Positions 5,061 to 38,436 of a stretch of 64,000 bases of DNA are shown here, piece after piece. Made by a program: the position numbers and the translations under genes. How positions within the stretch are numbered: position 1 is the stretch's first letter; each line of letters opens with the position of its first letter. Source of the DNA: Panorpa germanica (Eukaryota > Arthropoda > Insecta > Mecoptera > Panorpidae); contig OY783203.1 of NCBI GenBank assembly GCA_963678705.1, positions 46,004,347-46,068,346 on the forward strand, given 5' to 3'. The notes beneath the pieces were generated by a model. That model worked only from the letters and a program-made list of their open reading frames with translations, was not told the DNA's origin and ran no database searches.

Positions 5061-6773
5061 TTCATTTGTGTTTCATATATTGTAATGAGAATCAAAATGT
5101 CGTTTGGCTTCGATCGCAGAAGCGTTCTTTCGATAATACTCGCGAATGCAAAGCGCACGTTGTGCCCCGTATTAGCCGTTCTCGCATTTAATACTCTCCC
5201 CATGCTGTAGTACGTATATAGAAGGAAATTCAATGTCAAAAGTCAAAATGTCAAAAGTTTGTTTCACCGAGAAATACAGCCAAATCCGATTTTGATTGAT
5301 AAAAATATATATAAAATAAAATAAATATCCTATATTATAATGTTCCAAGTGCAAATTTATTTGCTTATATGTTTATTTGTTTATATGTTTACGCGATTCG
5401 TATGGTAGGTGGAAAACGGCTCCGCGCATTTTCTTAAAAATCGTCTATTCCTTAGAGAAATAAATTCTAAGACCTGGGCCTGGTAGGAAACTTTGGAGAA
5501 CACTCAAATTTTGAATTATTTAGTAATAAAGTATATTATTAAAAAAAAAAGTTCAAAACTCAAAAACTTTATTTGGGGGCACGGGGGCAGTTTTTGCCTA
5601 GGTTAAAAATTGAGCTAGAAAGTTGAAATTTTATATATGGGCTAACTTTGATGCCTAATTTACAAATCGAAAAAAAAATCCCAAATTTTGAAAAAAGATG
5701 GTCAATTAACAAATAAATTGAAAATGTTTTACATTTTGTTGAAAAAATTATATTTTTTTGGTCAATTTCATACACACCAAAAAGACGTCGCTTTGCGACG
5801 GGGGTAAACTCTAGGGTATACTCTATACGAGTATATATATGAAATAAATATATTTGAATGATATTTTTATTCTCTCCGACATTGATCCGAAAGTTGGACC
5901 CTGCTTGGTCTCTGCTACGACAGTAATGTATCCTAGATTTCATAACATAAAGTTTAGAAAAAAGCTGAAATAGCAAGTATTTCATATTATGATAATTTTA
6001 ATGTTTACATAACAAAACATTGTGTAGTTACAAAAAGTCGTCATAAGTTATGCCTTATGTCAGATTGCCAACTAATATATCATACATTACAAATGGCACA
6101 TGGACAAATGCACTGGAAATGACAGCAGGCGGGCAGAACACGAACTCAAATGTCCATTCCATACCCAATCACCAATCACCGACCGACACTGCCAATAACC
6201 ACAGAGACGGACTGCTATTGCAGCGTCTTCATGTTGCAAAATGAAAACACAAACTGACAGAAACAATAGATTCATTTCACCGAGATACACTCAGCTGCAA
6301 GCAAATTATATTAATAACTACTGGTAAAGCAAAATCCCCCTTTAATTTAATATATTTTTGTATTTTTTAGTTTAACAGGAATATTACGTTATTTTCAATT
6401 ATTTGGTTATTTCTTTATCTATTGTTATGAATATTTAGCTTTTCGCTCAATTACTTTTGTTGTTTCATATTCAAAAGGTTTGAACGTTCTGTTGTTTATT
6501 AAAATCACTCTTAATACAGCTCTCAAACCAGCAACAACCAAAACAACAAAATAAGAGCAAACTAAATAAAATTAAGAATAATCATCTTTTGTACTTTTTA
6601 TGTATTCTATTATTTAATTGTGTTTAATATAAGTGTGTTAAAATATAACCAGTGCTATTTTCACTTACTAAAACCTAAGCCAACAAGCGAAATTGTGAAA
6701 CAAGCGAATTTATAGGAAATAAAAGAACAGCTGTTAAACCAACGCGTATTCAACACCTACGCCCGTCGCACGC

Positions 6774-17104: not shown

Positions 17105-20100
17105 TTAAAGATGCTGCCATTGAGTTGCAACCAAATTATTTGTAGAATCTATAGAACGAGCAATCTCTTCATGAACGCCGTGACTAAGCCATAATAGATG
17201 CAATTTACGGTAACGCTCTTCACACAATTTAAGAGGATTTCCTCGTCGCAATCCCTGATCTGTTTCACCATATTCATCCAGGTACGGTGGTGACATAAAG
17301 CATCCCCTACTGGGACTAGCCAAGAATAAAATTTCACATTCTCGAACTCTCAAAAAAATTCCCACTCCTGCGCCGCATTTATGAGCATGGTAAATGCATG
17401 CACCTACTGATAGCTTGCTCAGTTCTGTTTGACAACAATAACTCTGAGAACAGAGCATTTCCCCACATACTAGACACATGGTGGGATTTCTTGAATCATC
17501 ACGATCACTGTTTGGGCAAGTAAACAATGATACTGTATTTATTAGTTCACTGTAATCGGTGGGCAAAGGAACCAATTTACTAACAACTGGTAAATCCTGA
17601 AGAAGTGGACTATTCTTTGGATCATTTAGAAAATTTATGAGATCTGGATGGTGACACCATTTTAAAATAAGTGAAGAAACATCAGATGTAAGTAGATCAT
17701 CAAAATTTTTTGGTAGACCTAAATATTTACATAAACTATCAAATTCTTCACCCGTCCCCGTTAAATTGGATGGAACAGGAACATCAGTCAAAAAGTGATA
17801 GAAAATGGCACAACATCGCAAGAAAGGACGACATGCTTCTTTTACATGTGTAACTAGTTTTTCTTCTGAGCATGCAAATGTTTTTACATTGATTTTTAAT
17901 TTAACAGCTTCTGTCAATTTCATCAATGCAGATTTATTAGTACCTTCAACGTCATCAACCTCCATAGCTGCTTCAGTAGTTTCACTTGGGATCAATATTA
18001 GTGATTTAGTAATTCTGGCTAAAAGCATTAATTTAAGTGCATATGATTCTTGAGTTCCTCCGGTTTGTATAGGTGGTGCCATGAATGTGCCTAATAGACA
18101 TGGCAATGAAAATGTCAGTATCACAAGAATACTAAAGCAGTCCCATTCGAGGATACAAGTATCTTCATGATCAAACAACATTGATAATAGTGCAAGTACC
18201 GAGTTATTCCAATTTGAGGTTTTACGATGCATTGCCGGAAATGCAGCACAAATACGCACCAAAAATTGAACACAATCTCTTTGTCGACTAGAAAGATCTC
18301 CTAGAAGTGATTTATCAGTATCTCGAAGTAACATTTCAAGCGAAAGAATTGTATATGCACATGATTTCCAAAGTAATATTGCCTTCCTTGGATGTCTACT
18401 ATCAACTTTAAGATCAGTTCCTTTAGTTATTATAGCATCAGTAAATATACGTATTATATGTTCAAGGGTTTCACTGAATTTTACTCTGCTTTCGCCGGGA
18501 TATAATTGTTCAAATTTTGATCCCATATCACCAAGGTTAGAAACTACATCATGAATAGAGGTAGTGTATTTGTTTTCTTTAGCTAATGGGTCGAGTGTAA
18601 ATGACATTTCATGTTCTAGTCGAATTCGTTCAGTGAATTTATGAAAATTATTTGAATCCCGAGATTTTAAATTAAGTGTTGTCTGAAGACCTACGAGCCA
18701 CTGTTCGAATGATATATCAACTGTCACAATTTTCGGTTGCAAAATTTGAAGTGACGGTATTAGGGGAATAACAGTATTACTCAGACACTCACAAAGCGGG
18801 CAAAGGAATTCCTGCTTGTCGACATCGAAACTAGCTGGTTGTCGAAGACGATATGGTCGACGTGTTTCTTTTGATACTACATTATCAAAATACTTTTGCC
18901 AGCAATGGATGTGCATTACATGACCACATGTTCCAGTATGAGTAGCTGGACCTAGGTTGGATGACATTATTATATCTTTTTCCGGTAAGTTATCAAGTCG
19001 TTGTGGTCGCAACACTGTAGATTGTTGCACATACGCAGATAGAACAAGAGCAAGACCATCCTTAGTTGCTATACTATCTTCTTGGCACAAAATACATGTA
19101 TACGATTTCTGTTCAACCGATTTAGATGTTTGTCTAGGGCCCAAACAAACGGGATCAGAGTTATCTGATATATCCATATTGGACCCTTTATATTCACCAG
19201 ATGCTCCTTGTAAACTTACACTTTCTGCTTCCTCAAATAATTCAGCATTTTGTTTAATAAAATTGTTTTGCATTGATGCCATTTGAGCCATCAATTTTTC
19301 ACGTCTCTGTGCTGCCATCATTGCGCGCCATTCTTTATCACTAGTAACGGATTGTTTGGTATTAGGTTCTTGTTTGGAAGAATGCGGTTCGCTTTCAGCT
19401 TGATGTTCAGCCATAGGAGTACTCGAAATGCTTTTAAACTTGTTAATAGTCCACATCAACAAGTCTTTATGCGCTTCCACCTTTAAGAAGAAAACATTCC
19501 TATATAAGTCAATATTCAATTAAATCAATATTGGCCTTCATGCATTAAAAAATTACTTACCCGTTGACTAGTTACTAATTCTTCCATTAAAGGTAATATC
19601 ATCCATTTACCAGCTCGTGAAGTAAACGTGAGAATATCATATCGTTTACTCTCTTCTTCTTGTAAAGCATATCCAATCAAATGTAAAACCTAAAGGTAAA
19701 TTTTTCATAAGACTTGGTAAGACTAATAATATAGAAATAATGTTGCAGTTAAAATATTTACCTTATGAAGTTGAGTTTCGGAAAAGCTTCGAGCTCTTAA
19801 ATCTGTACTTCGTGTAAGTATTGTATTCATTATATGGAGCATAACATCACACTGCAAGACATTGCTCAACATACTAGAACGAAAATAAATCATTACTATC
19901 GAATATAGAAATTAAGCTTATGAAATACAAGTTAAAATAATAACCTAAAAGATGGGGATAATTTTAATAGATCTGGTGGAGGGCAACATTCCAGTTCATT
20001 TGCTTGCTTTCGTCTGCTGCGTTGTGTTTCTTCAGATTTCGACAATTCTTCTCTGGTGTAATGATAAAAGAAAACATTATATTGATTGTATAGAGAGCTT

Positions 20101-23100
20101 TTTAATTCGTATACTCCCTTTCCAGTTGATTGTGTTGGCTTTTTAAAGTCCGCTATAGAATCTATAACATTTTCCATTCCAGTTTCATGGTGTATATCAT
20201 CCGGAAGTGTTTTATTTAATTCAGAATGTGGCATAGGTTTAATACATAATTGCTGTATTAATTCCTTTTTAATTCGCTCATCTTCCGTAACATTACTGAT
20301 GCCAGGCGTATGCCTTTCGCCAACAATTGTAATCAATAAACTAAGAAACTCTTCTACTAAATTAATAGTTTGTCTAATACTGTCTTCTTCCGGACTTCTA
20401 ATTAAACTCCTTGTTTCAAATAATGGACTTATCCAACTCAGTAGATTAAATTTATTTAGCAGATGAATGAGAAATTCATTACTTTCAATTAGTATTGCAC
20501 CAATTTGCAGTAATACAATATCTCGATCTAACATTTCAGTACGACATTTGACGTTATGATAAAAGTACAACTGATTTAAAAGTGCATAACCGTTTCGACG
20601 CCACATGCCCGCATGAACCTGTGATATCATTGACTGAGTTCTAAGAACAGGTTCTATTATTTGCTCAGGCACAGGTTTATCAACAGCAAATTCTTGACTG
20701 TCGTAACTTAAACCAAATTTTTCCAAATGCAAATGTAAGCCCGCTAAGAAACGAGATAATGGCAAATGTATCGAAACGGGTTGATTTGATACATCATATA
20801 CATAGCATGTTGCGCTATGGTCCGCCAACTCTTTCAGTTCACTGACTACACATGAATCTTTAACCAGAGTATCATGTAATCTCTGTAATGTAGCTCTATA
20901 TGCCTTAATAAGAACAACTCGATCAGTACCGCACCACTCAATCACTAGTGTAAGGACATGAGCAAGTTTTATGTGCAGATTGAATGCTGATTCCCATTCT
21001 GGCTCATATTCCATGTGTTGACCTATTTGCCTGGATACAGCATCCATTCCTTGCATTGATGTTAAGAGTTTTAAAATAAGTATAACTCCTTGTAAGAATC
21101 CTTTACGTAATTCATCGGTCCATACTTCCGGCTTAGAGCTCAGAAGATATCGCAAGTCATATAAAATATATTGCGCTCGTTTAAATGCTAAGTTCGAAAC
21201 ATTTCTCTCAAATTCCAATTTACCATCCTTATTACATTTGCGTGAGCATTCCGATATAAAAGTATTCAATAGAATAAATAGAACATCTTGAGAACCAATT
21301 AAATAATGTGCCAACGTAGGTACTGTAAAAATTTGTACACTCAAAGAGGATATAGAAAACGCATGATCATGATCATCTCGAATGAAGTCTTGCATTATAG
21401 ACCCATAATTTTTTGTAAAAACTGTAGCTAAAGCTTTTTTGCTGTGATATTCTAGAAGCATCCCAGAAATGAAAAGTCTGTGCCAGCTTGTACGGGCAGC
21501 CTTCCACAGATAAAAATCTCGAACCATTATTCCTTCTATAATTGAACGTTCCCCTGTTCTAGGTTTCAATGCAACTTCACTAAAAACAATTCTGAAACCT
21601 TCCATATGAGCCAAAGAATTTTGCAACCATGAAAGCAACTTTAATGCATATAACTGATGAGCCATAACGTATGTATGCATAACTAGCACCTTCAAAGCAC
21701 GACTTCCATGGCGAGAAGTATACCGCTCTATTTCCGTTTTAAGTTCATTGCAATGTTGAAATGATGAACATTTTACAACTGCACGGCCCTCTCTATCAAT
21801 ATTGGTCACATAATCGATAGCTTCTTTTTGCGAGCATTTAATTACTCGTGTTAACGTGTGTATCACCTATGAGGAAAATAGAGTTTCAGGTTTGTTCAAA
21901 ACAATAATACTATTGATTGCATTTATTGTACCTGTTCAAATGTATGTGTTTCATCGTTATATAAAACCGTACAATAAGTATCTGGAGTAGAAAGATGTGA
22001 CAGAACTTCTTCATCTGCTTCACGAGCTGGTTGTAGATCCAGTGGTAGTCCTGGAGCATGCTCCAATGTCAGTAGGTAATAACAGTACCAAAGAACTGCA
22101 TCTAACATTACACGAGTACGTTCTGTGACGTCTGGTGGAAATGCTGATACTTCTTTGGAATCATTTTTCGCGCCAGCCTAAATTAATTGTTAGTTAATAT
22201 CGCATAACATTCTTGTATCGTTAGAGAATATTATTTGATTTCAACATACAATATGAATTTCACAGAACGGATCTCTTTTCCAAGCTTCTTGGTCTCCACA
22301 ATCACAGCATCCGCCGCCACTAGACGTCCCCATTTTATATTTATGATGACGATGCTCCGATCCCTTAAAACAGTCAACGCAGAGAACGCAAGTTGCATCC
22401 ATACCTAATATGGGGAAAAAAAGAAATTAATGTACATAACATTGATAATTACCAAGAATAATATGAATGAAAATACCACATAGATCAGAGATAACTGCAG
22501 TCAAGCATTGAAACCTCATTGTACCAAGAGTCTCGGATACGGTACAGACGTATTATAGACAATATAACTAACTTCCAAGAATGAATAAGTTTTTTTTCCA
22601 AGTTAGTATAATCCTGACTGTAGTTTCGTAGGTAGTCGATGATGTTGTGTTTCGGGCTTTAGACGTAAGTACTATATAATAAATGGCCTTGAAAAGTGTA
22701 AATGCATTTTTTTAATTATATTGAAGTGCATCAACCTAGATAAGTTATTAGCACTACATTATGTTGGCAGCTTATGGTGTCATCGCCACGGATGTAGACT
22801 ATACCACTGCCTTTTGTTATTAAAATTATATTGTTATATAACTGATGGTATAAGACAAACAACCCGTGTTACCTATAACACAGCTGGTCTGGGATATAAA
22901 TTCAAAGAAACCAAGCATTGAAACAGCATTGCGTCAATGATCTTAAATTTTTGTTTGAAGTGCATCATCTTAGTGTGGTTGTTAACACAATACCATATTG
23001 ACATCCTACAGTGTCATGGCATCAAATTCATGCTACCCAATTATAATATAAGTAGCTTAAGATTTCGTCTCAGAAAAAGCTAGTCAAGTATTGAAACATA

Positions 23101-24137
23101 AATGCCTCAACAATTCAGGCCACATAACGGATACATTTATAATTCACTTTTGAACTTTTCAAAAAAGGCTACAAAAATTAACACTTTTAATCCTAATCTA
23201 AAACATCAAGAGTGCTTCAAGAACTATAGTGCGACTAGTAAGGCAAATCATTTTTGTTACTACTAAACATTAGAACCACTAAACTTTTTGAGATGCATGA
23301 GTGTCATTTTCTATCTAGAAAGTGCGATTTTTCCTGCCCTGTTATTATAGACATCTATAGTCATAACATCATCAGTTCTATAAGTGCTATCCAGTGCTAT
23401 TGATATCCTTGGAAGAATATGACGTAGCTTTCGTATACACAGCTGTGACATCTAATGTTGTTTTGCATTATTTGTTACTACTTTTTTTTGAATATTTGCG
23501 ATTTGTATAGAAGGGACCTTTAATACCTTTTTCAAAATATATTTGTTATGTGACGTATTATTAAAATTTCAGCAAAGGTAATTGATTCTAAGAAAAACAA
23601 ACCCTTAATCTAATGTAAAATATTATTCTGTTTTTACTTCACTTCATTATGTGAAAGTGAAGCAAATAAATATTAGCAGTGTTTTAAATCTTACCACATT
23701 CTCGGCAGCTGTAAGTAGGTTCACCCATCTTAAACACATGACCACATACAGATGGCTGATTCTGCAGCTGTTTTAACGACTCTTTCACAGTTTTGGGATC
23801 TCCGCCCCAAATATATTCTTCTAAGTTTTCAAAGAGAACTGGACGGGCATTTGTTTCATCGAAATTCCAATCTGTAAAGTAATTTAACATATATATTATT
23901 ACACCAGTTAAAGACATGAATGATAAAATAATTTATTCTACCTAAGCAGCTACAATCAGGTTCTGGAGAATAAAACTTCGGTACTGCATGTTTCCAATAA
24001 TCTTTTATTGTTTCGATTGACATTTCTCCAGTCATTTTTTCCTGCCATAACTGCATGCAAGATGTTCTGAGTTCTGCTTGAAACACGGGATCCTTCACGC
24101 GTTCTACAGGTACGTTCATTTCCACATCGTTGTCCAT
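17105..24137 (-). CDS. UBR1/UBR2: UBR1/UBR2-type E3 ubiquitin ligase (N-recognin, 8 exons)
   Basis: N-recognins bind destabilising N-terminal residues and ubiquitinate the protein (N-degron pathway). The - strand exons are 24137-23942, 23871-23695, 22404-22250, 22177-21932, 21866-19945, 19873-19762, 19689-19561 and 19480-17105. The 5313 nt give 1770 residues in frame, near the ~1750 of UBR1/UBR2. The UBR box (about 108-176) shows [45 protein letters not shown] and FCEIH. The ClpS-like domain (about 244-325) has [13 protein letters not shown] and [12 protein letters not shown]. The RING (about 1108-1209) has [20 protein letters not shown] and CPLCECL. The C-terminal end carries the autoinhibitory-type Cys/His region ([19 protein letters not shown]). 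The ClpS-like part separates it from UBR3. An acceptor at 24145 precedes the ATG by 7 nt, so a non-coding 5' exon lies upstream. Confidence 0.95.
22405..23694. other. UBR intron 2 with degenerate repeats
   Basis: The longest UBR intron (1.29 kb) contains three loose copies of CAAGCATTGAAAC (22502, 22912, and CAAGTATTGAAAC at 23085). Paired GTGCATCA words stand at 22727 and 22960, with similar text between them. This suggests an old, decayed tandem duplication. No coding sequence or small RNA is apparent. Confidence 0.35.
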
Positions 24138-24800
24138 ATTTTGCCTGAAGTAATTGTAGACATTTAGAAGAAAGAAATCTGATTCCAAAACCATTTTTCC
24201 AAGGAAAGATATCACAAAACTTCTTTAATAATAATAATAAATAAAATGTTCATTCATGTGCTTTGTCTTTGTTTCATTGTTGATCTTACTTTGTTTTATT
24301 CGACTATATGCAATGATCAAAACAAAAGCGAACGTAAAATGAAAACAATGCAACTAGATAATATATCTAGTCATTCCTATCAAACAAAATCTTGGCTCAA
24401 ATTCACTGACATATGCAAGTACCTTTCATTATATATTACTCATACTTACATATGCTACCAAGGTTAATTTGTAGATTTCAAATAAAGAAAATAGAACTTT
24501 TATGAAATTTTCAACAAATATTTTTCAGATTTGTGATAAAACAAATATGGTATCACATATATATTGAGATTAAAACAATATTCAATGCAAGTCACTCAAT
24601 AATTTTACGGGTTATAAATAAAATATCTAAAAGTATCCACAGAGCAACAAGAGCTCAGTAGTCAGTTGTCACTGTTCATCCCTACTTCGATGCTATTCGT
24701 AGGTCTCCAACTCCCATTTCACAGCTCGTCCCCGACTCCACTTGCGATCGGAGATGAGTTGCATTGACGATTCACAAATACTTTATTTCTTTGAATAGTG
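24138..24800 (-). promoter_or_regulatory. UBR upstream region, candidate 5' exon and promoter
   Basis: The acceptor CTTCAG (to 24145) just before the UBR start codon means that transcription begins further upstream. A GC-richer patch at 24690-24770 (TCGTCCCCGACTCCACTTGC) stands out from the AT-rich background and is the best candidate for the promoter or first non-coding exon. No clear donor was identified, so the exact exon is unknown. Confidence 0.4.
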
Positions 24801-26724
24801 TGTGTATTGTGGGTGATATGAGAGATGTTGATTAGAATTTATTATTGTAGATGATAATCATATGAGTCTCAGCATTTCAAAATACTCTAGCCGTGAAAGT
24901 ATTTGACTGAGAGTTAGTGAAAATACTTCTTGAAAACGGCGAAAGTTAAACGAATGTGTTGCCCAATAAATGTCATTGTTATATAGTAAAATACGATAGC
25001 ATTTCTAGTAAATATTTGTTTGTCACATCTTAATCAAACATTAGTAATGTCAATCGTTTATACAATAGTACTTACTTTTTACTTGTTCTTGATATAAACT
25101 AATTGATTCATTTCACTGTTTTCAAGAAACTATAGATCTATTTTTCATATAATACGAGACGACAAGCACATAATACACAATTTACCATGAGTGAACGAAA
25201 GCGATATATTAATTTCACACAAATGCGCAGAAACCTTCGTATGACGCAGAATAAGAAAGGCAACAAAACTAAAATAGATGAAGAAAGAAATACACGGTAG
25301 CCAACATAAACAGTTTCAAACCATCTTGGTTAGTCAGTACAGTGTTTAGTACAGAAAGTTTTCCGTAGTCTTTTAAGTAGTCGCAAAAAAAATTGATTTG
25401 CAAAAACTTAATTAATCATGTAATTCCATATAACACAATCCGTTTAATCGCAACGTCATTATATTTAGGATGTTCACCACCCCCTGGTAGATGCTCCCTG
25501 TCGGTCATAAAGTAATTGCAATTCGTAATATATCAGTTACGTGATGATTATTGAAAGAAGAAAGCACGGAAACCACGTTTCACTTTATAACATTCATATG
25601 TTTGCCAACTCCTATTTTATAATTACTTACAATTTGATTTATTATTTTGTATAGTATATAACTTGTAAAAACGGAATAAAATCCCAGTTCTGCTCATGCT
25701 GCTTTGCAATACGTTTTTAACTCGTTACCGAATATATAAACCAATTAAATTTCATAGTAACATATTGTCGTTTTCTACTCATTACTATTTTAACAAAATT
25801 ATTGTTGTTATTAAAGTCATAAAAGGATTGAACTTGGTGGTGCTGCATGCGATGTAAGTGCTGCAGTAAAATAGATGTCTTCAGTTAATTTGTTATGAAC
25901 ATGAATTTTGACGTTTGTTTTATAATGTCACGTCACGTGGCAATTTCTTTATTATTCTTTAAAGCAGTGGTTCTGAACATCTTCTAAATCATTTCACTTG
26001 ATTATAAGAAAAAAATACTGAAACAAAATGCTGTGTTAAAAGCAATGGGGTTTCAAAACTAACTAAATATGTATGAACATATCTTTTATTAAAAATCATA
26101 TCAACGCAACGCAACACAAAATCAATCAAAAGAAATCATATTCGCATTCATCATTCGCATCACATTTGTTGCGAAAAATAATACAGTGTATACTGTGGTT
26201 TAAAGTTTTCTAAGTAACTCAAATGTCTAAGTAAGTTCAAAACGAGAATGATTAAGGATGATATTACTCAGTATCCTTCACGTTTGTGCTGCTCTAATGC
26301 TAGATAAGAAGAAGTATATTTAAACAAAATTTTTACAAGCACGACGTTTTCTGTTCTAGCTAATTCGACACTCAACTGAATTGTAATTACTTTACACTGA
26401 AATAAAATTATGATCCGATTTCGAATGAATATGTATAATGTGTTTAATTGAAAAATTAAATTAGAGCGCTGGCGAGCCGCTAATCGAATATATAAATAAT
26501 AACAAACTATCCAAACAGTTACAATAAAATAAATTCCCTAGCTAAAATAAAATTATGTATTTGTATTAAATTGTTACTGAATACAATAGAACGCAGTTTT
26601 ACAAGGTAGAAAAATGTTGCTAAAAAAGACAGAAAATTTAAAAAAACACCTCACGTAATTTATGGACGCCCCCTAATGGGCTTGTGTCCTCATTTTTTAG
26701 TGGTCGATTTTCCAATTGTTGATT

Positions 26725-27091
26725 GAAATTGATGTTAATAAATGTGTATTGGCTTGTTTATTTTATTAAATATCTAAATGTTGACGGAGATATAGCAATT
26801 AAAAGTTTGAATTGTAGCTTTAGCGCTAGAAATGGTCGACCATATTTGTATGACGTGAAATGCATTTTAACGTAAGTTATTTGTTGAGTAGGTCAGTGCT
26901 ATGGTAATATTTTGTAGCTGTTGGTAGTCGAAATAATCAAGTCAAGTCAAAGAATAATAGGTTTTTATTTTATTTAACCCTGTTACGGCAGATATAATAT
27001 TGGAATTTTATTGTTCCTTGAAATAGCTGTAAATAATATTTGATATTTTGATAGATAAATACATATAGCAGAGATTTATGAGCTGTAAGGT
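26725..27091. repeat. Dispersed direct repeat, copy 1
   Basis: This 367-bp segment recurs in the same orientation at 48732-49065 with only scattered substitutions. This copy has an extra ~33 bp (from GTTACGGCAG) in its latter part that copy 2 lacks. It starts GAAATTGATGTTAATAAATG and ends GAGCTGTAAGGT, and both ends coincide between the copies. There are no inverted termini or frames, so the class is unknown; a SINE, solo LTR piece or MITE are options. Confidence 0.85.
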
Positions 27092-28825
27092 AGCAGCGGT
27101 TGTGATGTCACATGCATTTGGAATGTGTACAACGTTGAATCCCTAAATTTGAATAATTAAAGAGACAAAATGACTTCTTTAATTGTTAATATTTCTTAAC
27201 ATATAAGGAGTTATTAAAAAATAATTGAACATTTGAGGTTCTAGTAACCAACTTTATCAATAAATAGTACACTTTTATAGAAATTAAGACATAGGACACA
27301 AGCCTATTTTCACGACATGCCCTGATCTCACTGTGGTTATTACGTGCATCTGAGTACATCCCACACGCTCGCATAGTTAAGCACTTTAAAAAGTTCTGCT
27401 CGCGCATTATGTGCACAATTGATACCAACTAAATAGCATAAAATGTAAAAATTTCTAGATATTGTTGACAATTACTATTGATTACTATTTCCAATACCAT
27501 TGTATGAATTTAATTAATAGTTTTAATAACAATTTTTATTTTACTTATAAAAATTAGGTAAAAAATTTGGACAATTTTTGAGAATAATACTGAACTGTTA
27601 GTTGTTAATTTCGGTAATGATATTGTGGCTATTTAAAACATACTGAACGGATGTGGTCCTCCCTGTTGCAGGAAGATTTTATTAATTAATTAAAATTACA
27701 TTACGTATAGATAATGTTAAGTTCGAACCTCAATGCACATACAATATTAGAAAAAATATTTTAAAAAGTCAAAAGAAGAAAAATTAGAGTAATAGAATTA
27801 AAGGACCAGTAGGCGCAAAATGTTCATTGAATTAATTTTTATTGTATTATGAAAAAGAGGATATAGTTAAGTTTTGGGTAAGATCCTTAGAAAACATATA
27901 CTCAAACGTATCTTCCTAAAAATAAATAATAGTCCTTTTGTGTATATGGTCGACCCTAACAATTTAATCACAATGACGCAAACCATTTTTGGAATGACGT
28001 CGTAGCAATAGAAAGCTTGCGTCACCGATTGCTCCATAAAATTAAATTTTAAATAGGTGTATATAGCCAATAGCTGTTCGATTTGTTTAATAATTTGAAA
28101 AACAATAATCAATCATATCGAAAAAATAAATATTTTGATGATGATCAAAGAATAATTCACAACTAAACTTGTTTTAAAAGTTTTTGTAATTAATTTTAAA
28201 TTTATTTAAATTTCTATAAATTATTCCATACATCTATTACATAAAGCGATACGGTGGGGTTGGGGGATGTTAAGTACAAAATCCAAAAAAATTAAAATTA
28301 AAATAGAACTATTTAAAATAATAAAGTACAGTTTAATTTTCTCACAATTCAATACAATTTTATGTTTCAAAATTAGCTCTTGCATATAAAATACGAGTAT
28401 AATTCATTTTCTATATAAGTTCTCTTGTGTTCCAAATTTTTTCGTAAATAAATAATTCTATTTATTTTGCCAATTCGATTTTGTTGTTGATGCTTGTCGT
28501 TGTTTGTTTGATTGATGTTGGATATTGGATATTGAATATTTATTATATTATTGAAGGGTTCTGTTAGATATTGAGAATTAAAAAACAAAAGAAAAAATTA
28601 TAAGAAATTACAAAGGAAACATACTGTAACCGTCCACTTTAAATCTAAGACTTAAGCGACCAACCGAAAACTCTTCTATAATTTAGAGCATTAAAAGGTC
28701 ACATGCGTCGTGTACAGGGGACTATGACGGTTTGCCGGCTGACGATGCTGTGTGTTCGGCTTCGATATCCGGACTAGAGTATATTTTGTGGGTTTAGTTA
28801 TTATCAAGTTACATTGATTTTGTAC

Positions 28826-29495: not shown

Positions 29496-30204
29496 GTTGG
29501 AAGTTCAGTTTGAAGTCGTAACACAACTCGATTTGAGTTATCCTCTTGCACAAATGATTTGCAGAAAAGTGATGCGCAGTAATTGAATTTGGAAGTGGTT
29601 CACTATACCTCGAAATAAATTGCGCATGCGGTTTACCACTGACAATAAATAAGCATGACCGACTCATTTTGAAAGCGGAAAACACGTGATTTTTCGTGAT
29701 TTCGAAAAGTGCATGCGTATATGTACATACCATATATTGTCGAAATTGTCTTTCAAGATCTCAGGTTATATGTTATCACGATACAGGTTATAGGTAATAT
29801 GTTGTCACGATATTATAACAGTTAAGCTGACCTTTTAAAAGACACGAAAATTACTAAAAAGTAGAGCACAAACAATACTTTTACATCATTTTTACTGTCC
29901 GATGATATTATGCTTTTCTAGTGACCAGCCATGAGATTTCACGTCAAGAGATTTGCTGCAAAGTATAACCAGATGGAAAATTCACTATAAGGCTAAAAGA
30001 AATGCATTGAAAAATTTGAAATATCTTAACTATTTTGGATTTTATAAGGGGTTCTAAAAATTCATGGATTTTTTTTTTCAAAAGGGAAAATTATTGATTT
30101 CTTAATAATTTTTGATGCAATTATATTTATTTAGGTTTAAGAAGACAAACTGCGTTAAAAATTTTAAAATATCTTAACTATTTTGGAATTTATAAGGGTT
30201 ATAA

Positions 30205-30490
30205 GGATTAGTGGTTAATTGGCTGCATTAATGGCTAATTATTCTACAATTAAACTTTCTGATGATTTAACATAGCCTTGTAAAATTGAAAATTACTAAA
30301 CGTTACGCCTGAATTACATACTTCTATAGTAGCATCACCAAAATATTAGTGGGTAATTGTGCCTGCATTTAATTATTTTATAATTAAACGTTCTGATGAT
30401 TTAACATAGCTTTGTAAAATTGAAAATTACTAAACGTTGCGCCTGAATTACATGCTTCTACAGTAGCATCACCAAAATATTAGTGGTTAA
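30205..30490. repeat. Left-arm ~135-bp repeats (2 copies)
   Basis: Two tandem copies of a second unit interrupt the outer left arm. They include TTTCTGATGATTTAACATAG, ACTAAACGTT(A/G)CGCCTGAAT and AGCATCACCAAAATATTAGT. The same unit appears inverted at 35.8-36.1 kb and 36.4-36.7 kb. This gives the structure an ordered edge, as expected of a defined element rather than a random satellite patch. Confidence 0.85.
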
Positions 30491-30499
30491 GTAAAATTA

Positions 30500-32998
30500 G
30501 TAGTAAATTCATGGACTTTCTTTTCAAAAAGGAAAATTATTGATTTTTTAATAATTTTTGATGCAATTATATTCATTTAGGTTTAAGAAGACGAACTGCG
30601 TTAAAAAAATTATAATATCCTAACTATTTTGGATTTTATAAGCGGTTCTAAAAATTCACGGACATTTTTTCAAAAAGGAAAATTATTGATTTCTTAATAT
30701 TTGTTGATGCAGTTATATCCATTTGTGTTTAAAAAGACGAACTGCGTTAAAAAATTTAAAATATCTTAACTATTTTGGATTTTATAAAGGGTTCTAAAAA
30801 TTCATGGACTTTTTTTTCAAAAAGGAAAACTATTGATTTCTTAATATTTTTTGATGCAGTTATATTCATTTGTATTTAAGAAGACGAACTGCGGTAATAA
30901 ATTTAAAATATCTTAACTATTTTGGATTTTATAAAGGGTTCTAAAAATTCATGGACTTTTTTTTCAAAAAGGAAAACTATTGATTTCTTAATATTTTTTG
31001 ATGCAGTTATATTCATTTGTATTTAAGAAGACGAACTGCGGTAATAAATTTAAAATATCTTAACTATTTTGGATTTTATAAGGGATTCTAAAAATTCATG
31101 GACTTTTTTTTCAAAAAGTAAAATTATTGATTTCTTAATATTTTTTGATGCAATTATATTCATTTAGGTTTAAGAAGACGAACTGCGTTAAAAAATTTAA
31201 AATATCTTAACTATTTTGGATTTTATAAGGGATTCTAAAAATTCATGGACTTTTTTTTTAAAAAGTAAAATTATTGATTTCTTAATACTTTTTGATGCAA
31301 TTATATTCATTTAGGTTTAAGAAGACGAACTGCGTTAAAAAATTTAAAATATCTTAACTATTTTGGATTTTATAAGGGATTCTAAAAATTCATGGACTTT
31401 TTTTTCAAAAAGTAAAGTTATTGATTTTTTAATATTTTTTGATGCAATTATATCCATTTATGTTTAAGAAGACGAACTGCGTTAAAAAATTTAAAATATC
31501 TTAACTATTTTGGATTTTATAAGGGATTCTAAAAATTCATGGACTTTTTTTTCAAAAAGTAAAATTATTGATTTCTTAATATTTTTTGATGCAATTATAT
31601 TCATTTAGGTTTAAGAAGACGAACTGCGTTAAAAAATTTAAAATATCTTAACTATTTTGGATTTTATAAGGGATTCTAAAAATTCATGGACTTTTTTTTC
31701 AAAAAGTAAAATTATTGATTTCTTAATATTTTTTGATGCAATTATATTCATTTAGGTTTAAGAAGACGAACTGCGTTAGAAAATTTAAAATATCTTAACT
31801 ATTTTGGATTTTATAAGGGATTCTAAAAATTCATGGACTTTTTTTTCAAAAAGTAAAATTATTGATTTCTTAATATTTTTTTATGCAATTATATCCATTT
31901 ATGTTTAAGAAGACGAACTGCGTTAAAAAATTTAAAATATCTTAACTATTTTGGATTTTATAAGGGATTCTAAAAATTCATGGACTTTTTTTTCAAAAAG
32001 TAAAATTATTGATTTCTTAATATTTTTTGATGCAATTATATTCATTTAGGTTTAAAAAGACGAACTGCGTTAAAAAATTTAAAATATCTTAACTATTTTG
32101 GATTTTATAAGGGATTCTAAAAATTCATGGACTTTTTTTTCAAAAAGTAAAATTATTGATTTCTTAATATTTTTTGATGCAATTATATTCATTTAGGTTT
32201 AAGAAGACGAACTGCGTTAAAAAATTTAAAATATCTTAACTATTTTGGATTTTATAAGGGATTCTAAAAATTCATGGACTTTTTTTTCAAAAAGTAAAAT
32301 TATTGATTTCTTAATATTTTTTGATGCAATTATATTCATTTAGGTTTAAGAAGACGAACTGCGTTAAAAAATTTAAAATATCTTAACTATTTTGGATTTT
32401 ATAAGGGATTCTAAAAATTCATGGACTTTTTTTTCAAAAAGTAAAATTATTGATTTCTTAATATTTTTTTATGCAATTATATCCATTTATGTTTAAGAAA
32501 ACGAACTGCGTTAAAAAATTTAAAATATCTTAACTATTTTGGATTTTATAAGGGATTCTAAAAATTCATGGACTTTTTTTTCAAAAAGTAAAATTATTGA
32601 TTTCTTAATATTTTTTGATGCAATTATATTCATTTAGGTTTAAGAAGACGAACTGCGTTAAAAAATTTAAAATATCTAAACTATTTTGGATTTTATAAGG
32701 GATTCTAAAAATTCATGGACTTTTTTTTCAAAAAGTAAAATTATTGATTTCTTAATATTTTTTGATGCAATTATATTCATTTAGGTTTAAGAAGACGAAC
32801 TGCGTTAAAATATTTAAAATATCTTAACTATTTTGGATTTTATAAGGGATTCTAAAAATTCATGGACTTTTTTTCAAAAAGTAAAATTATTGATTTCTTA
32901 ATATTTTTTTATGCAATTATATTCACTTAGGTTTAAGAAGACGAACTGCGTTAAAAAATTTAAAATATCTTAACTATTTTGGATTTTATAAGGGGTTC
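30500..32998 (+). repeat. Left arm, 147-bp array (~17 copies)
   Basis: The landmark AACTGCG falls at 30594, 30740, 30887, 31034, 31181, 31328, 31475 and so on to about 32944. That is a steady 147-bp step with one 146-bp step. Variants cluster locally: adjacent copies at 30887 and 31034 share GCGGTAATAAATTT, and the ATCCATTTATGTTT form returns every few copies. This is the mark of unequal exchange within the arm. Confidence 0.95.
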
Positions 32999-33020
32999 TA
33001 AAATTCATAATCAGGATAAG

Positions 33021-35795
33021 GAACCCCTTATAAAATCCAAAATAGTTAAGATATTTTAAATTTTTTAACGCAGTTCGTCTTCTTAAACCTAAATGAATAT
33101 AATTGCATTAAAAAATATTCAAAAATCAATAGTTTTACTTTTTGAAAAAAAAATCCATGAATTTTTAGAATCCCTTATAAAATCCAAAATATTTAAGATA
33201 TTTTAAATTTTTTAACGCAGTTCGTCTTCTTAAATCTAAATGAATATAATTGCATCAAAAAATATTAAGAAATCAATAATTTTACTTTTTGAAAAAAAAG
33301 TCCATGAATTTTTAGAATCCCTTATAAAATCCAAAATAGTTAAGATATTTTAAATTTTTTAACGCAGTTCGTCTTCTTAAACATAAATGGATATAATTGC
33401 ATAAAAAAATATTAAGAAATCAATAATTTTACTTTTTGAAAAAAAAGTCCATGAATTTTTAGAATCCCTTATAAAATCCAAAATAGTTAAGATATTTTAA
33501 ATTTTTTAACGCAGTTCGTCTTCTTAAACCTAAATGAATATAATTGCATCAAAAAATATTAAGAAATCAATAATTTTACTTTTTGAAAAAAAAGTCCATG
33601 AATTTTTAGAATCCCTTATAAAATCCAAAATAGTTAAGATATTTTAAATTTTTTAACGCAGTTCGTCTTCTTAAACATAAATGGATATAATTGCATAAAA
33701 AAATATTAAGAGATCAATAATTTTACTTTTTGAAAAAAAAGTCCATGAATTTTTAGAATCCCTTATAAAATCCAAAATAGTTAAGATATTTTAAATTTTT
33801 TAACGCAGTTCGTCTTCTTAAACCTAAATGAGTATAATTGCATCAAAAAATATTAAGAAATCAATAATTTTACTTTTTGAAAAAAAAGTCCATGAATTTT
33901 TAGAATCCCTTATAAAATCCAAAATAGTTAAGATATTTAAAATTTTTTAACGCAGTTCGTCTTCTTAAACCTAAATGAATATAATTGCATCAAAAAATAT
34001 TAAGAAATCAATAATTTTACTTTTTGAAAAAAAGGTCCATGAATTTTTAGAATTCCTTATAAAATCCAAAATAGTTAAGATATTTTAAATTTTTTAACGC
34101 AGTTCGTCTTCTTAAACCTAAATGAATATAATTGCATAAAAAAATATTAAGAAATCAATAATTTTACTTTTTGAAAAAAAAGTCCATGAATTTTTAGAAT
34201 CCCTTATAAAATCCAAAATAGTTAAGATATTTTAAATTTCTTAACGCAGTTCGTCTTCTTAAACATAAATGGATATAATTGCATCAAAAAATATTAAAAA
34301 ATCAATAATTTTACTTTTTGAAAAAAAAGTCCATGAATTTTTAGAATCCCTTATAAAATCCAAAATAGTTAAGATATTTTAAATTTTTTAACGCAGTTCG
34401 TCTTCTTAAACCTAAATGAATATAATTGCATCAAAAAATATTAAGAAATCAATAATTTTACTTTTTGAAAAAAAAGTCCATGAATTTTTAGAATCCCTTA
34501 TAAAATCCAAAATAGTTAAGATATTTTAAATTTTTTAACGCAATCGTCTTCTTAAACATAAACGGATATGATTGCATAAAAAAATATTAAAAAATCAATA
34601 ATTTTACTTTTTGAAAAAAAAGTCCATGAATTTTTAGAATCCCTTATAAAATCCAAAATAGTTAAGATATTTTAAATTTTTTAACGCAGTTCGTCTTCTT
34701 AAACATAAACGGATATGATTGCATAAAAAAATATTAAAAAATCAATAATTTTACTTTTTGAAAAAAAAGTCCATGAATTTTTAGAATCCCTTATAAAATC
34801 CAAAATAGTTAAGATATTTTAAATTTTTTAACGCAGTTCGTCTTCTTAAACATAAACGGATATGATTGCATCAAAAAATATTAAAAAATCAATAATTTTA
34901 CTTTTTGAAAAAAAAGTCCATGAATTTTTAGAATCCCTTATACAATCCAAAATAGTTAAGATGTTTAAAATTTTTTAACGCAGTTCGTCTTCTTAAACAT
35001 AAATGGATATAATTGCATCAAAAAATATTAAGAAATCAATAATTTTACTTTTTGAAAAAAAAGTCCATGAATTTTTAGAATCCCTTATAAAATCCAAAAT
35101 AGTTAAGATATTTTAAACTTTTTAACGCAGTTCGTCTTCTTAAACATAAATGGATATAATTGCATCAAAAAATATTAAGAAATCAATAATTTTACTTTTT
35201 GAAAAAAAAGTCCATGAATTTTTAGAATCCCTTATACAATCCAAAATAGTTAAGATGTTTAAAATTTTTTAACGCAGTTCGTCTTCTTAAACATAAATGA
35301 ATATAATTGCATCAAAAAATATTAGGAAATCAATAATTTTACTTTTTGAAAAAAAAGTCCATGAATTTTTAGAATCCCTTATAAAATCCAAAATAGTTAA
35401 GATATTTTAAATTTTTTAACGCAGTTCGTCTTCTTAAACCTAAATGAATATAATTGCATCAAAAAATATTAAGAAATCAATAATTTTACTTTTTGAAAAA
35501 AAAGTCCATGAATTTTTAGAATCCCTTATAAAATCCAAAATAGTTAAGATATTTTAAATTTTTTAACGCAGTTCGTCTTCTTAAACCTAAATGAATATAA
35601 CTGCATCAAAAAATATTAAGAAATCAATAGTTTTCCTTTTTGAAAATAAAGTCCATGAATTTTTAGAACCCCTTATAAAATCCAAAATAGTTAAGATATT
35701 TTAAATATTTTAACGCAGTTCGTCTTCTTAAACATAAATGGATATAATTGCATAAAAAAATATTAAGAAATTAATAATTTTCCTTTTACAAAAGA
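33021..35795 (-). repeat. Right arm, inverted 147-bp array (~19 copies)
   Basis: The inverted landmark CGCAGTTCG recurs from 33069 (33069, 33216, 33363, 33510 and onward) to 35714, again at 147 bp. Arm-specific variants occur: three neighbouring copies with AAACGGATATGATTGCAT (34.55-34.88 kb), and two alternate copies with TATACAATCC plus AGATGTTTAAAA. These are absent from the left arm, so the arms have diverged independently. Confidence 0.95.
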
Positions 35796-35799
35796 AAGT

Positions 35800-36700
35800 C
35801 CATGAATTTACTACTAATTTTACTTAACCACTAATATTTTGGTGATGGTACTATAGAAGTATGTAATTCAGGCGCAACGTTTAGTAATTTTCAATTTTAC
35901 AAGGCTATGTTAAATCATCAGAACGTTTAATTATAAAATAATTAAATGCAGGCACAATTACCCACTAATATTTTGGTGATGCTACTATAGAAGTATGTAA
36001 TTCAGGCGCAACGTTTAGTAATTTTAAATTTTACAAAGCTATGTTAAATCATCAGAAAGTTTAATTGTAGAATAATTAGCCATTAATGCAGCCAATTAAC
36101 CACTAATCCTTATAACCCTTATAAATTCCAAAATAGTTAAGATATTTTAAAATTTTTAACGCAGTTTGTGTTCTTAAACATAAATGGATATAATTGCATA
36201 AAAAAATATTAAGAAATCAATAATTTTCCTTTATGAAAAAAAAGTCCATGAATTTTTAGAACCCTTTATAAAATCCAAAATAGTTAAGATATTTTAAATT
36301 TTTTAACGGAGTTCGTCTTCTTAAACATAAATGGATATAATTGCATCAAAAAATATTAAGAAATCAATAATTTTCCTTTTTGAAAAGAAAGTCCATGAAT
36401 TTACTACTAATTTTACTTTACCACTAATATTTTGGTGATGCTACTATAGAAGTATGTAATTCAGGCGCAACGATTAGTAATTTTCAATTTTACAAGGCTA
36501 TGTTAAATCGTCAGAACGTTTAATTATAGAATAATTAAATGCAGGCACAATTACCCACTAATATTTTGGTGATGCTACTATAGAAGTATGTAATTCAGGC
36601 GCAACGTTTAGTAATTTTCAATTTTACAAGGCTATAAAAATCATCAGAACGTTTAATTGTAGCATAATTGAGTGCAGCCAATTAACCACTAATATCTTGA
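35800..36700 (-). repeat. Right-arm outer composite (135-bp and 147-bp units)
   Basis: From the centre outward come two inverted ~135-bp units (35800-36112), then two 147-bp units (36113-36395), then two more ~135-bp units (36400-36700). A degraded third copy fades by about 36840. The left arm has only the inner part of this series, so the left end is either truncated or the right end was extended by duplication. Confidence 0.85.
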
Positions 36701-36840
36701 TGGTGATAATAGTTTGTAATTCAGGTTCAAAGTTTATTTTTCTATTAAATTTTCAAGACTATGTTAAAATTAACATCCCACTAAACTTTTATTCATTTTA
36801 TCATAGGCTACTATAATATTTACCGTAAAATTTTCAGTCT

Positions 36841-38016
36841 AATGAAAGTAATAATATGCAGTAAAAATCGTTAAGTGCTTTTTGTTAAATTCTCAAAATG
36901 TCTAAACAATATCATGTAGTAAATAAGGACTATCAAACCAATTTTCATCGCTCTAGTAGTTTCTATAACAAACGTATAATAAACACCCATTGCCATGCAA
37001 TGGGGCGAATATTTAGTATCTGTATAATTCTCTGCAGTATCCAGGTATGTGTATTACATTAATTTATTGTGGTGTCTCTGCTCACAAACTTATCATACTA
37101 GCTGCTGGACCTGATGTGATATGAATATAATAGACATGGTACAAAGTATATGTTTGTTTTAATTTTGTATTATTTGGTCGTTAGGGCCCGCTAAACACAA
37201 TACGTAAACTTATGAATTATTTAATGTAATATTTTTTACATAACGTTACGTTTCATTTTTTACCGAATTTTAACATGATTTTGTTACAAAGTCATTAAAG
37301 GCATGCAAAAGAGATTAACAATATTTTACTAATATATTAATTTAACATGTAATATTATATAATCTTGCATTAAAAGTTTTATTAACGTCAGAAAACATAA
37401 ATTTATGTAAAAATATATTTTTTGTTATGTAATTAAGTTATGTTAACCAAAAAAATGTAATGTATACCTTATACCTTTTACATAACAGTTTACGTAAACT
37501 TTGTTTATCAGAGGGTGACTTTGTGCATTGTATAAAACAAAGATAGATATTTGGATACATAAAGTGATTGTAAGTGAACAAACTATACATGCCTCCTCTT
37601 TGTTCCCCCGCCCCATCAAATGAATTTTCAGTTGCACTCTTTTTGTCCAAGAAATAGTTGATCACTTTAAGACATTCCAGTAAACATTTTGGAGTCACTC
37701 TGCCATCATATTGAAGATGCGTATGATTTTCTTGTCATGAAAGAGTTCATTTACAGTTCAGTTTCTCACAGTCGTTCATATAAAATGTCTATTTTATCGG
37801 CTACAAATGGCGAACCCACTCCACCTGTCGGAATACAAACGAAGATAAAGTTGATGTGTCACAAAACAAAACGCTTCACCAAATTGTTTACTGGGATATA
37901 GCATTAAAGTATGATCAAAGTAGTTATTCCGAAAATCTAAAATATCGAAAACATATTCTATTACTTGTTGCTTGTTGTTTGGTTCTTTTTTTATATAACT
38001 TTTACTCTCTTTTGAC
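36841..38016. other. Gene-free flank of the foldback
   Basis: I see no gene. Open frames near 37438-37901 lack codon structure, conserved motifs and splice signals. One copy of a ~97-bp dispersed repeat lies at 37161-37257. Confidence 0.5.
37161..37257. repeat. Dispersed 97-bp direct repeat, copy 1
   Basis: AATTTTGTATTATTTGGTCG through ACGTTACGTTTCATT is repeated in the same orientation at 41059-41154 with a handful of differences. The inner part contains GCTAAACACAATACGTA and TTTTTTACATAACGTTACG. Class unknown. Confidence 0.85.
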
Positions 38017-38436
38017 CAGAGGCGGTCTTAGGGGGTGGCAAGCAGGGCAACCGCCTGGGGCCTCGCATTCTCCCGCAACTACCCAAGTAGAAAAAATTCA
38101 TTACTATATATACGAGTATATATTTGAATCTCGCGCCTCGCTCCTTAGAAATGCCACTAGAATCACTGCGTATATCTTTTAAGGTATTCATGTACCTTAG
38201 TTTATCATCATTAATATTTGTCGTCTTTATGCTTGTTAACTTTTATAAAACTTCCAATATAAAATTTAATTTCTCGTCAATTATCATCAAAAATACTTAC
38301 TTACAATTTACATAAATTATACAAAGAACAAGTGCCTCGCAAAGATCTGCCATCCTGGGGTCTCGCAAAGTTCTGCCGCCCGGGGCCTCGCAAAAATCTG
38401 CTGCCCTGGGCCTCGCAATGGCTGAGGCCGCCTCTG
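38017..38436. mobile_element. hAT-like MITE (420 bp)
   Basis: The left end reads CAGAGGCGGTCTTAGGGGGT. The right end, inverted, reads CAGAGGCGGCCTCAGCC, a typical hAT-type terminus. The interior is non-coding. The right end carries three 25-26-bp subterminal repeats (38334-38419). The flanking 8-bp words do not match well, so the target duplication has decayed or the exact end is off by a few bases. Confidence 0.75.
38334..38419. repeat. Subterminal 25-bp repeats of the hAT-like MITE
   Basis: Three tandem copies of CTCGCAAA(G/A)(A/T)TCTGC(C/T)... are followed by a partial CTCGCAATGG. Each copy ends in CCTGGGG/CCCGGGG-type text. In hAT elements such repeats are transposase-binding sites; that role is inferred here. 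Confidence 0.7.

What the first reader, a model, noticed from the sequence alone, without database searches (positions are those of the whole stretch)
30011..36700. 6.7-kb foldback made of 147-bp units, with ordered outer repeats
About 17 copies of a 147-bp unit face about 19 inverted copies across a 22-bp spacer, and both arms then pass into mirrored ~135-bp repeats. A plain satellite has no reason to be symmetric about a point and to have matching edges. Foldback-type transposons (for example Drosophila FB and Galileo) do have long termini built of internal tandem repeats, so a non-autonomous element of that kind is the leading idea. I know of no described family with this unit, but I could not search.
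Basis: partly seen in the sequence, partly recalled or inferred. Interest (0 to 1): 0.8.

Follow-up and report, generated by a model that had tools for sequence, protein, structure and literature searches.

The report
Jumping gene carrying mirror-image repeats
The mirror-image block of repeated DNA is built from the inner repeat of a rolling-circle jumping gene (a Helitron) that carries two long arrays facing each other and sits at many places in this genome; the copy in the window looks like a rearranged remnant of that kind, not a Drosophila-style foldback transposon.

Summary
In detail: about 17 copies of a 147-bp unit face about 19 inverted copies, and 495 bp of flank is mirrored at 96%. 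The FB/Galileo-type reading fails for the related copies. The 147-bp unit is the internal repeat of a non-autonomous Helitron family. Of 20 other loci fetched, 17 hold an A-type array facing a diverged B-type array across an 82-bp spacer; all 17 have a Helitron 3' end: hairpin, then CTAG before T. Most 5' ends read A|TC. Empty copies of L039's target repeat show insertion between A and T without duplication. In 6 of 32 loci the core is flipped relative to the 3' end, as if the arms recombine. The window copy is a derivative: both arms are A-type with identical consensus, a Helitron 3' end lies at 36921-37016, no 5' end is joined to it, and the "edge" 134-bp repeats are internal blocks found at four C21 places. 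Best reading: a palindrome formed inside Helitron-derived repeats. I found no description of a Helitron with paired facing arrays in the open-licence papers searched: a new variant of a known kind.

The parts
29999..30204 (+). outer 147-bp units of the left arm (about 1.4 copies); left limit of homology, DNA unique in the genome search to its left
30205..30504 (+). two 134-bp units with their junctions; mirrored at 35810-36109
30505..33008 (+). left array, 17.1 copies of the A-type 147-bp unit, starting at unit position 34
33009..33020 (.). centre of the palindrome between the two arrays (inside a 20-nt loop in the fold)
33021..35809 (-). right array, 19.0 inverted copies of the A-type 147-bp unit; arm consensus identical to the left arm's
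35810..36109 (-). inner right block of two 134-bp units, mirror of 30205-30504 (342 matches, 7 mismatches over the slightly larger block 35794-36142)
36110..36402 (-). two further inverted 147-bp units; mirrored on the left only as far as about 36303
36403..36768 (-). outer 134-bp block (two units plus one 76% unit), no left counterpart
36769..36920 (.). tail sequence; in the genome search listed elsewhere only at C21:46778k
36921..37016 (+). Helitron 3' end: shared with 38 other listed places, hairpin CCCATTGC-CAT-GCAATGGG, ends TTTAG before T (CTAG in the family)
5328..5814 (+). separate Helitron 5' end (A|TCCTATATTATAATGTTCC) and pieces of the family leader (74-96%); a host UBR-like gene lies between it and the foldback, so it is not taken as its 5' end
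26698..27308 (.). repeat copy without insertion that serves as an empty site for the Helitrons at L039 (26698-27053) and L047 (26972-27308)

Best explanation
The 147-bp unit is the internal tandem repeat of a non-autonomous Helitron family whose body is two facing arrays (A units, an 82-bp spacer, inverted B units) between a Helitron 5' end and a 3' hairpin end. Shown: the ends, insertion between A and T without duplication (where testable), at least 32 dispersed loci with spacer and tail, low divergence among the fetched copies, and flipped cores. Inferred: movement by rolling-circle transposition using RepHel proteins of other Helitrons in the genome; array length changes by unequal exchange or replication slippage; cores flip by recombination between arms. 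The window copy is a derivative on C21: an A-type array with its 134-bp blocks was inverted-duplicated (or kept alike by conversion) next to a Helitron 3' end, giving a palindrome that lacks a 5' end and is probably immobile.
For: 17 of 20 fetched loci are A-array/82-bp spacer/B-array, and 17 of 17 have the Helitron 3' tail (12 seen in the stretches; 5 by genome position). A search for the hairpin alone, not asking for the end, found it in 12 of these loci and all 12 read CTAG then T; L032 does too. The hairpin has an 8-bp stem, 12 nt from the end. 11 of 17 have a TCCTATATTATAATG-type 5' end (L042 with a 2-bp variant), 10 after A and 1 after C. L039 sits at GACATAATA|TTGAAATT; the join aligns through in 8 other sources (10 rows), and the four shown letter by letter, the window among them, are exact at the join. 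Of 39 spacer places counted from the listed rows, 32 have the tail on the expected side, 26 in the same orientation and 6 flipped. Twelve fetched tails differ by a median of 0.4% (66 pairs). Window arms have identical consensus and lie 6 or more differences from each of 14 other arms (8 loci) compared; the mirrored 134-bp blocks match each other better than either matches the outer block. The Helitron_like_N domain has 893 candidate places, 150 scored, with open frames up to 1489 aa.
Against: The window copy itself has no 5' TC end joined to it, and its 3' end reads TTAG, not CTAG. Sequence before its 3' end (36660-36920) occurs at C21:46778k without that 3' end following it, so the 3' end may be merely adjacent. 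L031 and L049 show facing A arrays with no recognised Helitron ends. No autonomous element with the same ends was found: 0 of 23 listed Helitron_like_N places on C1 and the start of C2 had a listed exact 5' end within 12 kb upstream. Only 2 of 9 testable elements gave clear empty sites. Fetched loci were picked from the best matches, so low divergence is partly selection; tails down to 78% exist. 5' ends vary: L036 and L047 have another type, L034, L045 and L046 none.
Confidence: 0.82

Rival explanations
1. FB/Galileo/Tetris-type foldback DNA transposon with long terminal inverted repeats made of tandem units, moved by cut-and-paste.
For: Facing arrays at many loci with shared edges; Tetris is a precedent with about 220-bp units in its TIRs (PMC4079207, abstract and outline seen).
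Against: In the A/B family the arrays are internal: 5' leader and 3' tail are different sequences. No target-site duplication at L039. No shared boundary word of 4 bp or more at 29999/37016 in the window or at L031; L049 has a 5-bp word (ATAAA) several bases off its limits, probably chance.
Confidence: 0.06
2. Plain local inverted duplication (palindrome) of a satellite on one chromosome, with no relation to a transposon.
For: Window arms share a private consensus; the palindrome includes 134-bp flanks found only at C21 places; C21:46778k is likewise mirrored including flank, 98.7% over 236 bp.
Against: The unit is the core repeat of a dispersed family with Helitron ends, and a Helitron 3' end lies at the window copy's right limit.
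Confidence: 0.1
3. Hairpin-RNA source: the facing arrays are transcribed into long double-stranded RNA that yields small RNAs, and this keeps the arrangement.
For: Long near-identical inverted arms in the window; in A/B copies the A and B arms stay 20 of 147 positions apart although fetched tails differ by a median of 0.4%.
Against: No expression or small-RNA data; no target was looked for; dispersion is explained by transposition alone.
Confidence: 0.05
4. Assembly artefact (false foldback of reads).
For: Inverted repeats can be misassembled (general knowledge).
Against: The same 82-bp spacer recurs at dozens of places; A and B arms differ by 20/147; flanks differ between loci and empty sites exist.
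Confidence: 0.02

Closest known systems
Helitrons (bat Helibat/Helraiser type)
   Same: 5'-TC, CTAG-3', 19-bp palindrome about 11-12 nt from the 3' end, insertion between A and T, not absolute (PMC4778049, passages seen)
   Different: Non-autonomous; body is two facing satellite arrays; 5' ends are mixed between families
Helentron-type non-autonomous elements with central tandem repeats (Cg_HINE of oyster)
   Same: A satellite-like array between two end modules (PMC7492417, passages seen)
   Different: HINEs are described there with subterminal inverted repeats and a 3' palindrome; that they lack a CTRR end is recalled. A review mentions central arrays 'oriented in different directions' in oyster Helitrons (PMC12628747, passages seen); the passages do not describe a conserved facing pair with a spacer
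Tetris foldback element of Drosophila virilis
   Same: Tandem units in inverted arms that also feed satellite-like arrays (PMC4079207, abstract and outline seen)
   Different: Tetris arms are terminal inverted repeats; here the arms are internal and the ends are Helitron ends
Tandem truncated Helitrons of plants (Xiong et al. 2016)
   Same: Helitron-linked tandem amplification, several 5' ends with one 3' end (as reported in PMC12628747, passage seen; original paper not seen)
   Different: Arrays of truncated elements, not facing arrays of a short unit

Membership tests
Helitron (A/B family at the other loci) | 5' end TC preceded by A | tested here: met
   11 of 17 loci have a TCCTATATTATAATG-type end, 10 after A, 1 after C; L035 has TCATATATT after A; L036 has TCTTACT after A; L047 has TCTTACT after T as first placed, after A if its empty site L034 is used; L034, L045, L046 have none
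Helitron (A/B family at the other loci) | 3' end CTRR followed by T | tested here: met
   12 of 12 hairpins in fetched A/B stretches are followed by CTAG|T with neither asked for. One search repeats this with a pattern that included CTAG; 33 genome matches of a longer pattern included CTAG and T by design
Helitron (A/B family at the other loci) | hairpin about 10-12 nt before the 3' end | tested here: met
   8-bp stem, -8.9 kcal/mol, z -3.5, 1 of 200 shuffles as good (one element folded)
Helitron (A/B family at the other loci) | no terminal inverted repeat, insertion between A and T without duplication | tested here: met
   of 9 elements with both ends in the stretch, L039 clear, L047 clear with a few bases of length variation, L043 one weak match, L042 unclear, 5 no match
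Helitron (A/B family at the other loci) | encodes RepHel, or has an autonomous partner with the same ends | tested here: inconclusive
   the bodies read as arrays, spacer, leader and tail, with no room shown for a RepHel gene (not scanned protein by protein); 893 candidate Helitron_like_N places in the genome, but 0 of 23 tested have a listed exact 5' end within 12 kb upstream
Helitron (window copy) | 3' hairpin and CTRR end | tested here: inconclusive
   hairpin present (z -2.9, 2 of 200 shuffles as good), end is TTAG before T
Helitron (window copy) | 5' TC end joined to the body | tested here: not met
   the close 5' motif is at 5328, beyond a host gene; none at the left limit 29999
FB/Galileo-type foldback transposon (features recalled) | terminal inverted repeats at the element ends | tested here: not met
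   A/B family: leader and tail are different sequences
FB/Galileo-type foldback transposon (features recalled) | target-site duplication | tested here: not met
   L039; window, L031: none of 4 bp or more
Helentron/HINE | subterminal inverted repeats | not tested
   not searched for
Helentron/HINE | 3' end other than CTRR (recalled) | tested here: not met
   CTAG ends
hairpin-RNA locus | transcription and small RNAs from the arms | not testable with these tools
   no RNA data

The most novel reading that the evidence does not exclude
A Helitron lineage that stably carries a pair of facing satellite arrays, so that its single-stranded intermediate is a kilobase-scale hairpin; the facing arrangement of the same unit arose more than once (A/B with an 82-bp spacer; window, L031 and L049 with different centres), which would mean that Helitron replication itself makes or favours inverted arrays, for instance by snap-back synthesis.
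Probability: 0.3. Interest if true: 0.62.

Novelty: new variant of a known kind. Interest (0 to 1): 0.48.

Why it matters
Helitrons are thought to move by rolling-circle replication, with a small 3' hairpin acting as a stop signal. A widespread Helitron that carries two facing arrays of about 1-7 kb each tests how that machinery copes with a huge internal hairpin, gives a natural assay of arm-to-arm recombination (flipped cores), and links rolling-circle transposition to palindromes and satellite formation.

Tried and rejected
A single 31.7-kb Helitron from 5328 to 37016 was considered and rejected: a host UBR-like gene lies between and 5328-5814 carries its own leader pieces. A boundary word (TSD) at the window limits was looked for and not found. 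Mirrored flanks were looked for at L031 and L049 and not found; only 254 bp of left flank was available at L049. The unit order of the two window arms was compared for a register: inner units are mixed, and the two outermost left units are closest to the outermost right unit. The midpoint of the C21:46778k palindrome was fetched, but it holds one-direction, A-like units, so its turning point was not seen. Which chromosome is the sex chromosome, and which species this is, was not settled. Searches use only units with at least 139 aligned bases; shorter ones were dropped, and one search compares 16 arms of 9 loci (window included), not all.

Papers behind 'no description found': searches, of an open-licence library only; passages; abstract and outline.
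Full report
What is there. The window lies at C21:46004347-46068346 of a 464-Mb genome. At its middle, 17.1 forward copies of a 147-bp unit (30505-33008) face 19.0 inverted copies (33021-35809). The mirror continues outward through two 134-bp units and into further 147-bp units: 30010-30504 matches 35810-36303 inverted at 96.2% over 495 bp. The right side then has material with no left partner: the rest of a second 147-bp unit, a second 134-bp block (36418-36669), a diverged 134-bp unit, a tail, and at 36921-37016 a 3' end that matches 38 other listed places at 77-88% (40 of 177 candidates were scored, so this is a lower bound). That end carries the hairpin CCCATTGC-CAT-GCAATGGG and stops TTTAG before T.

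The unit elsewhere. A genome search with the 147-bp unit gave 534 matches from 40 scored of 715 candidates, so counts are lower bounds. I fetched 20 places of 10 kb, chosen from the best-listed matches, so they are biased towards units like the window's. Of these 20, 17 are facing arrays with an 82-bp spacer, 2 (L031, L049) are facing arrays with almost no spacer, and 1 (L032) is one-directional. In the 17, one arm consists of A units and the other of B units, apart from L039, L045 and L050, treated below; the two consensus sequences differ at 20 of 147 positions. Where the standard edges survive, A arms start at unit position 84 and B arms end at position 34.

They are Helitrons. Outside the arrays, copies share a 5' leader (about 900 bp in the commonest form) and a 3' tail of about 260 bp, after which flanks differ. 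The 5' end is mostly TC after A, and the 3' end is CTAG before T. Of the 17, 11 have the TCCTATATTATAATG-type end (10 after A, 1 after C), two (L036, L047) have a TCTTACT end, one (L035) a TCATATATT end, and three (L034, L045, L046) none. A search for the hairpin alone found it in 12 of the 17 stretches, and all 12 go on to CTAG|T; the other five have the tail at genome positions outside the stretch. The hairpin has an 8-bp stem and lies 12 nt from the end; the bat Helitron Helraiser has a 19-bp palindrome 11 nt from the end and the same TC/CTAG and A|T rules, with some exceptions to AT targets (PMC4778049, passages). The strongest test is the empty site. L039 sits in a repeat, and eight other sources carry that repeat aligned through the join; the four shown letter by letter (L034, L046, L032 and the window at 26698-27053) read ATAATA|TTG there with nothing duplicated or lost at the join. 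L047 agrees, with a few bases of length variation between empty copies. L043 gives one weak match (79%, 105 bp), L042 matches 147-like units where the join is unclear, and the other five of nine gave none.

Spread and unstable cores. Twelve fetched tails differ by a median of 0.4% in aligned bases (66 pairs, maximum 2.3%), but tails as low as 78% are listed genome-wide, so there are older copies too. Among fetched copies whose tail is 99% or more identical to L041's, full A units per arm range from 8 (L037) to 27 (L042); over all A/B copies from 8 to 49. So array length changes fast relative to sequence. From the rows listed by the spacer search I counted 39 places with the whole query matched (129-131 of 131 bases), keeping the better strand of each; 32 have a Helitron tail or 3' end within 12 kb, each on the expected side; in 26 the spacer and tail have the same orientation and in 6 opposite (three of the tails come). 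For 7 no tail was in my lists, which were capped; a later pattern search puts 3' ends near two of them, one in the same and one in the opposite orientation (C14:14172100, C2:27651993). For the weakest of the 39 (about 76-82% identity) the orientation is uncertain, because the spacer is itself partly palindromic. In the one flipped copy I fetched (L039) the arms read A9-B3 and A15-B1, the pattern expected from one exchange between the arms. L045 and L050 show two and three units of the other class next to the centre without a flip.

5' ends are borrowed. The exact 5' end (with its A) occurs 950 times in the genome, and the 3' end 211 times with up to two mismatches; reversed-pattern controls gave 0 in both cases. 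The leader has 6079 candidate places, 40 scored. A second Helitron-like 5' motif lies 113 bp before the array, and L035 starts at it. So the commonest form looks like a chimera that gained an outer 5' end (inference). Helitron_like_N domains are abundant (893 candidates, 150 scored), but none of the 23 tested places on C1 and the start of C2 has a listed exact 5' end within 12 kb upstream: the partner is unknown.

The window copy. Both arms are A-type; their consensus sequences are identical and differ by at least 6 positions from each of the 14 other arms compared, from 8 loci. The mirrored 134-bp blocks differ by 7 of 349, less than either differs from the outer block of the right arm (22-23 mismatches and 25 gap positions). 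L031's arms also resemble each other most (1 difference), but L049's do not (5, against 2 between one of them and L031), so in-place duplication is not shown for L049. The 134-bp unit was found at four places, all on C21 between 43.4 and 46.8 Mb. It is bordered by 147-bp units on both sides in the window and at C21:46481k (L054), on one side with the same junction at C21:43414k (L053), and on one side with a different junction at C21:46778k (L052). At C21:46778k it also flanks a Helitron 3' end (CTAA) on both sides in mirror image, 98.7% over 236 bp. So the 134-bp repeats are internal blocks of a C21 composite, and a C21 palindrome can include flank. The best account of the window is an inverted duplication (or conversion) within Helitron-derived repeats that end at a Helitron 3' terminus. 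Whether the whole composite ever moved as one Helitron is open: there is no 5' end and the 3' end is mutated.

How the facing arrays arise is inference. The left arms break at unit positions 31-41 in the window, L031 and L049, while the right arms begin at 30, 45 and 65, and the three centres and the A/B spacer have different sequences, which suggests several origins. Snap-back synthesis on a single-stranded intermediate, or template switching at replication, would do this; neither is tested.

Novelty. Helitrons with central satellite arrays are known (PMC7492417, passages), and foldback elements with tandem units in their arms are known (Tetris, PMC4079207, abstract). A review notes oyster Helitron arrays in different directions (PMC12628747, passages). 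A conserved pair of facing arrays inside a dispersed Helitron was not found in my searches, which cover open-licence papers only.

Noticed in passing
window 17105-21866, minus strand (perhaps on to 24224): Exons of a UBR1/UBR2-like N-recognin E3 ubiquitin ligase (Pfam PRT6_C, UBR1-like winged helix, ClpS), a host gene between the 5328 Helitron end and the foldback. The frame at 23856-24224 was not scanned.
   Followed up: yes
window 38000-38420: GC-rich repeat with a 25-bp tandem unit at 38334-38418; by eye, a similar sequence follows the 3' end of element L034.
   Followed up: no
G000 C1:11817161-11817287 and similar: Two or three exact Helitron 5' ends in a row at 48-56-bp spacing, several times in the listed part of C1, like the multiple 5' ends reported for plant Helitron arrays.
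   Followed up: no
G000, Helitron_like_N places: Many places with the same score and an open frame of 1119 aa among the 150 listed, which lie mostly on C1, C2 and C5: autonomous Helitrons may be active in this genome.
   Followed up: no
L051/L052 (C21:46777900-46785300): Helitron 3' ends point outward on both sides of one array region, with mirrored flanks: an element with two 3' ends inside a palindrome.
   Followed up: partly
L050 (C21:40601700-40611699): B arm differs by 12-14 positions from the three other B arms compared: an older or separate lineage of the same element.
   Followed up: no
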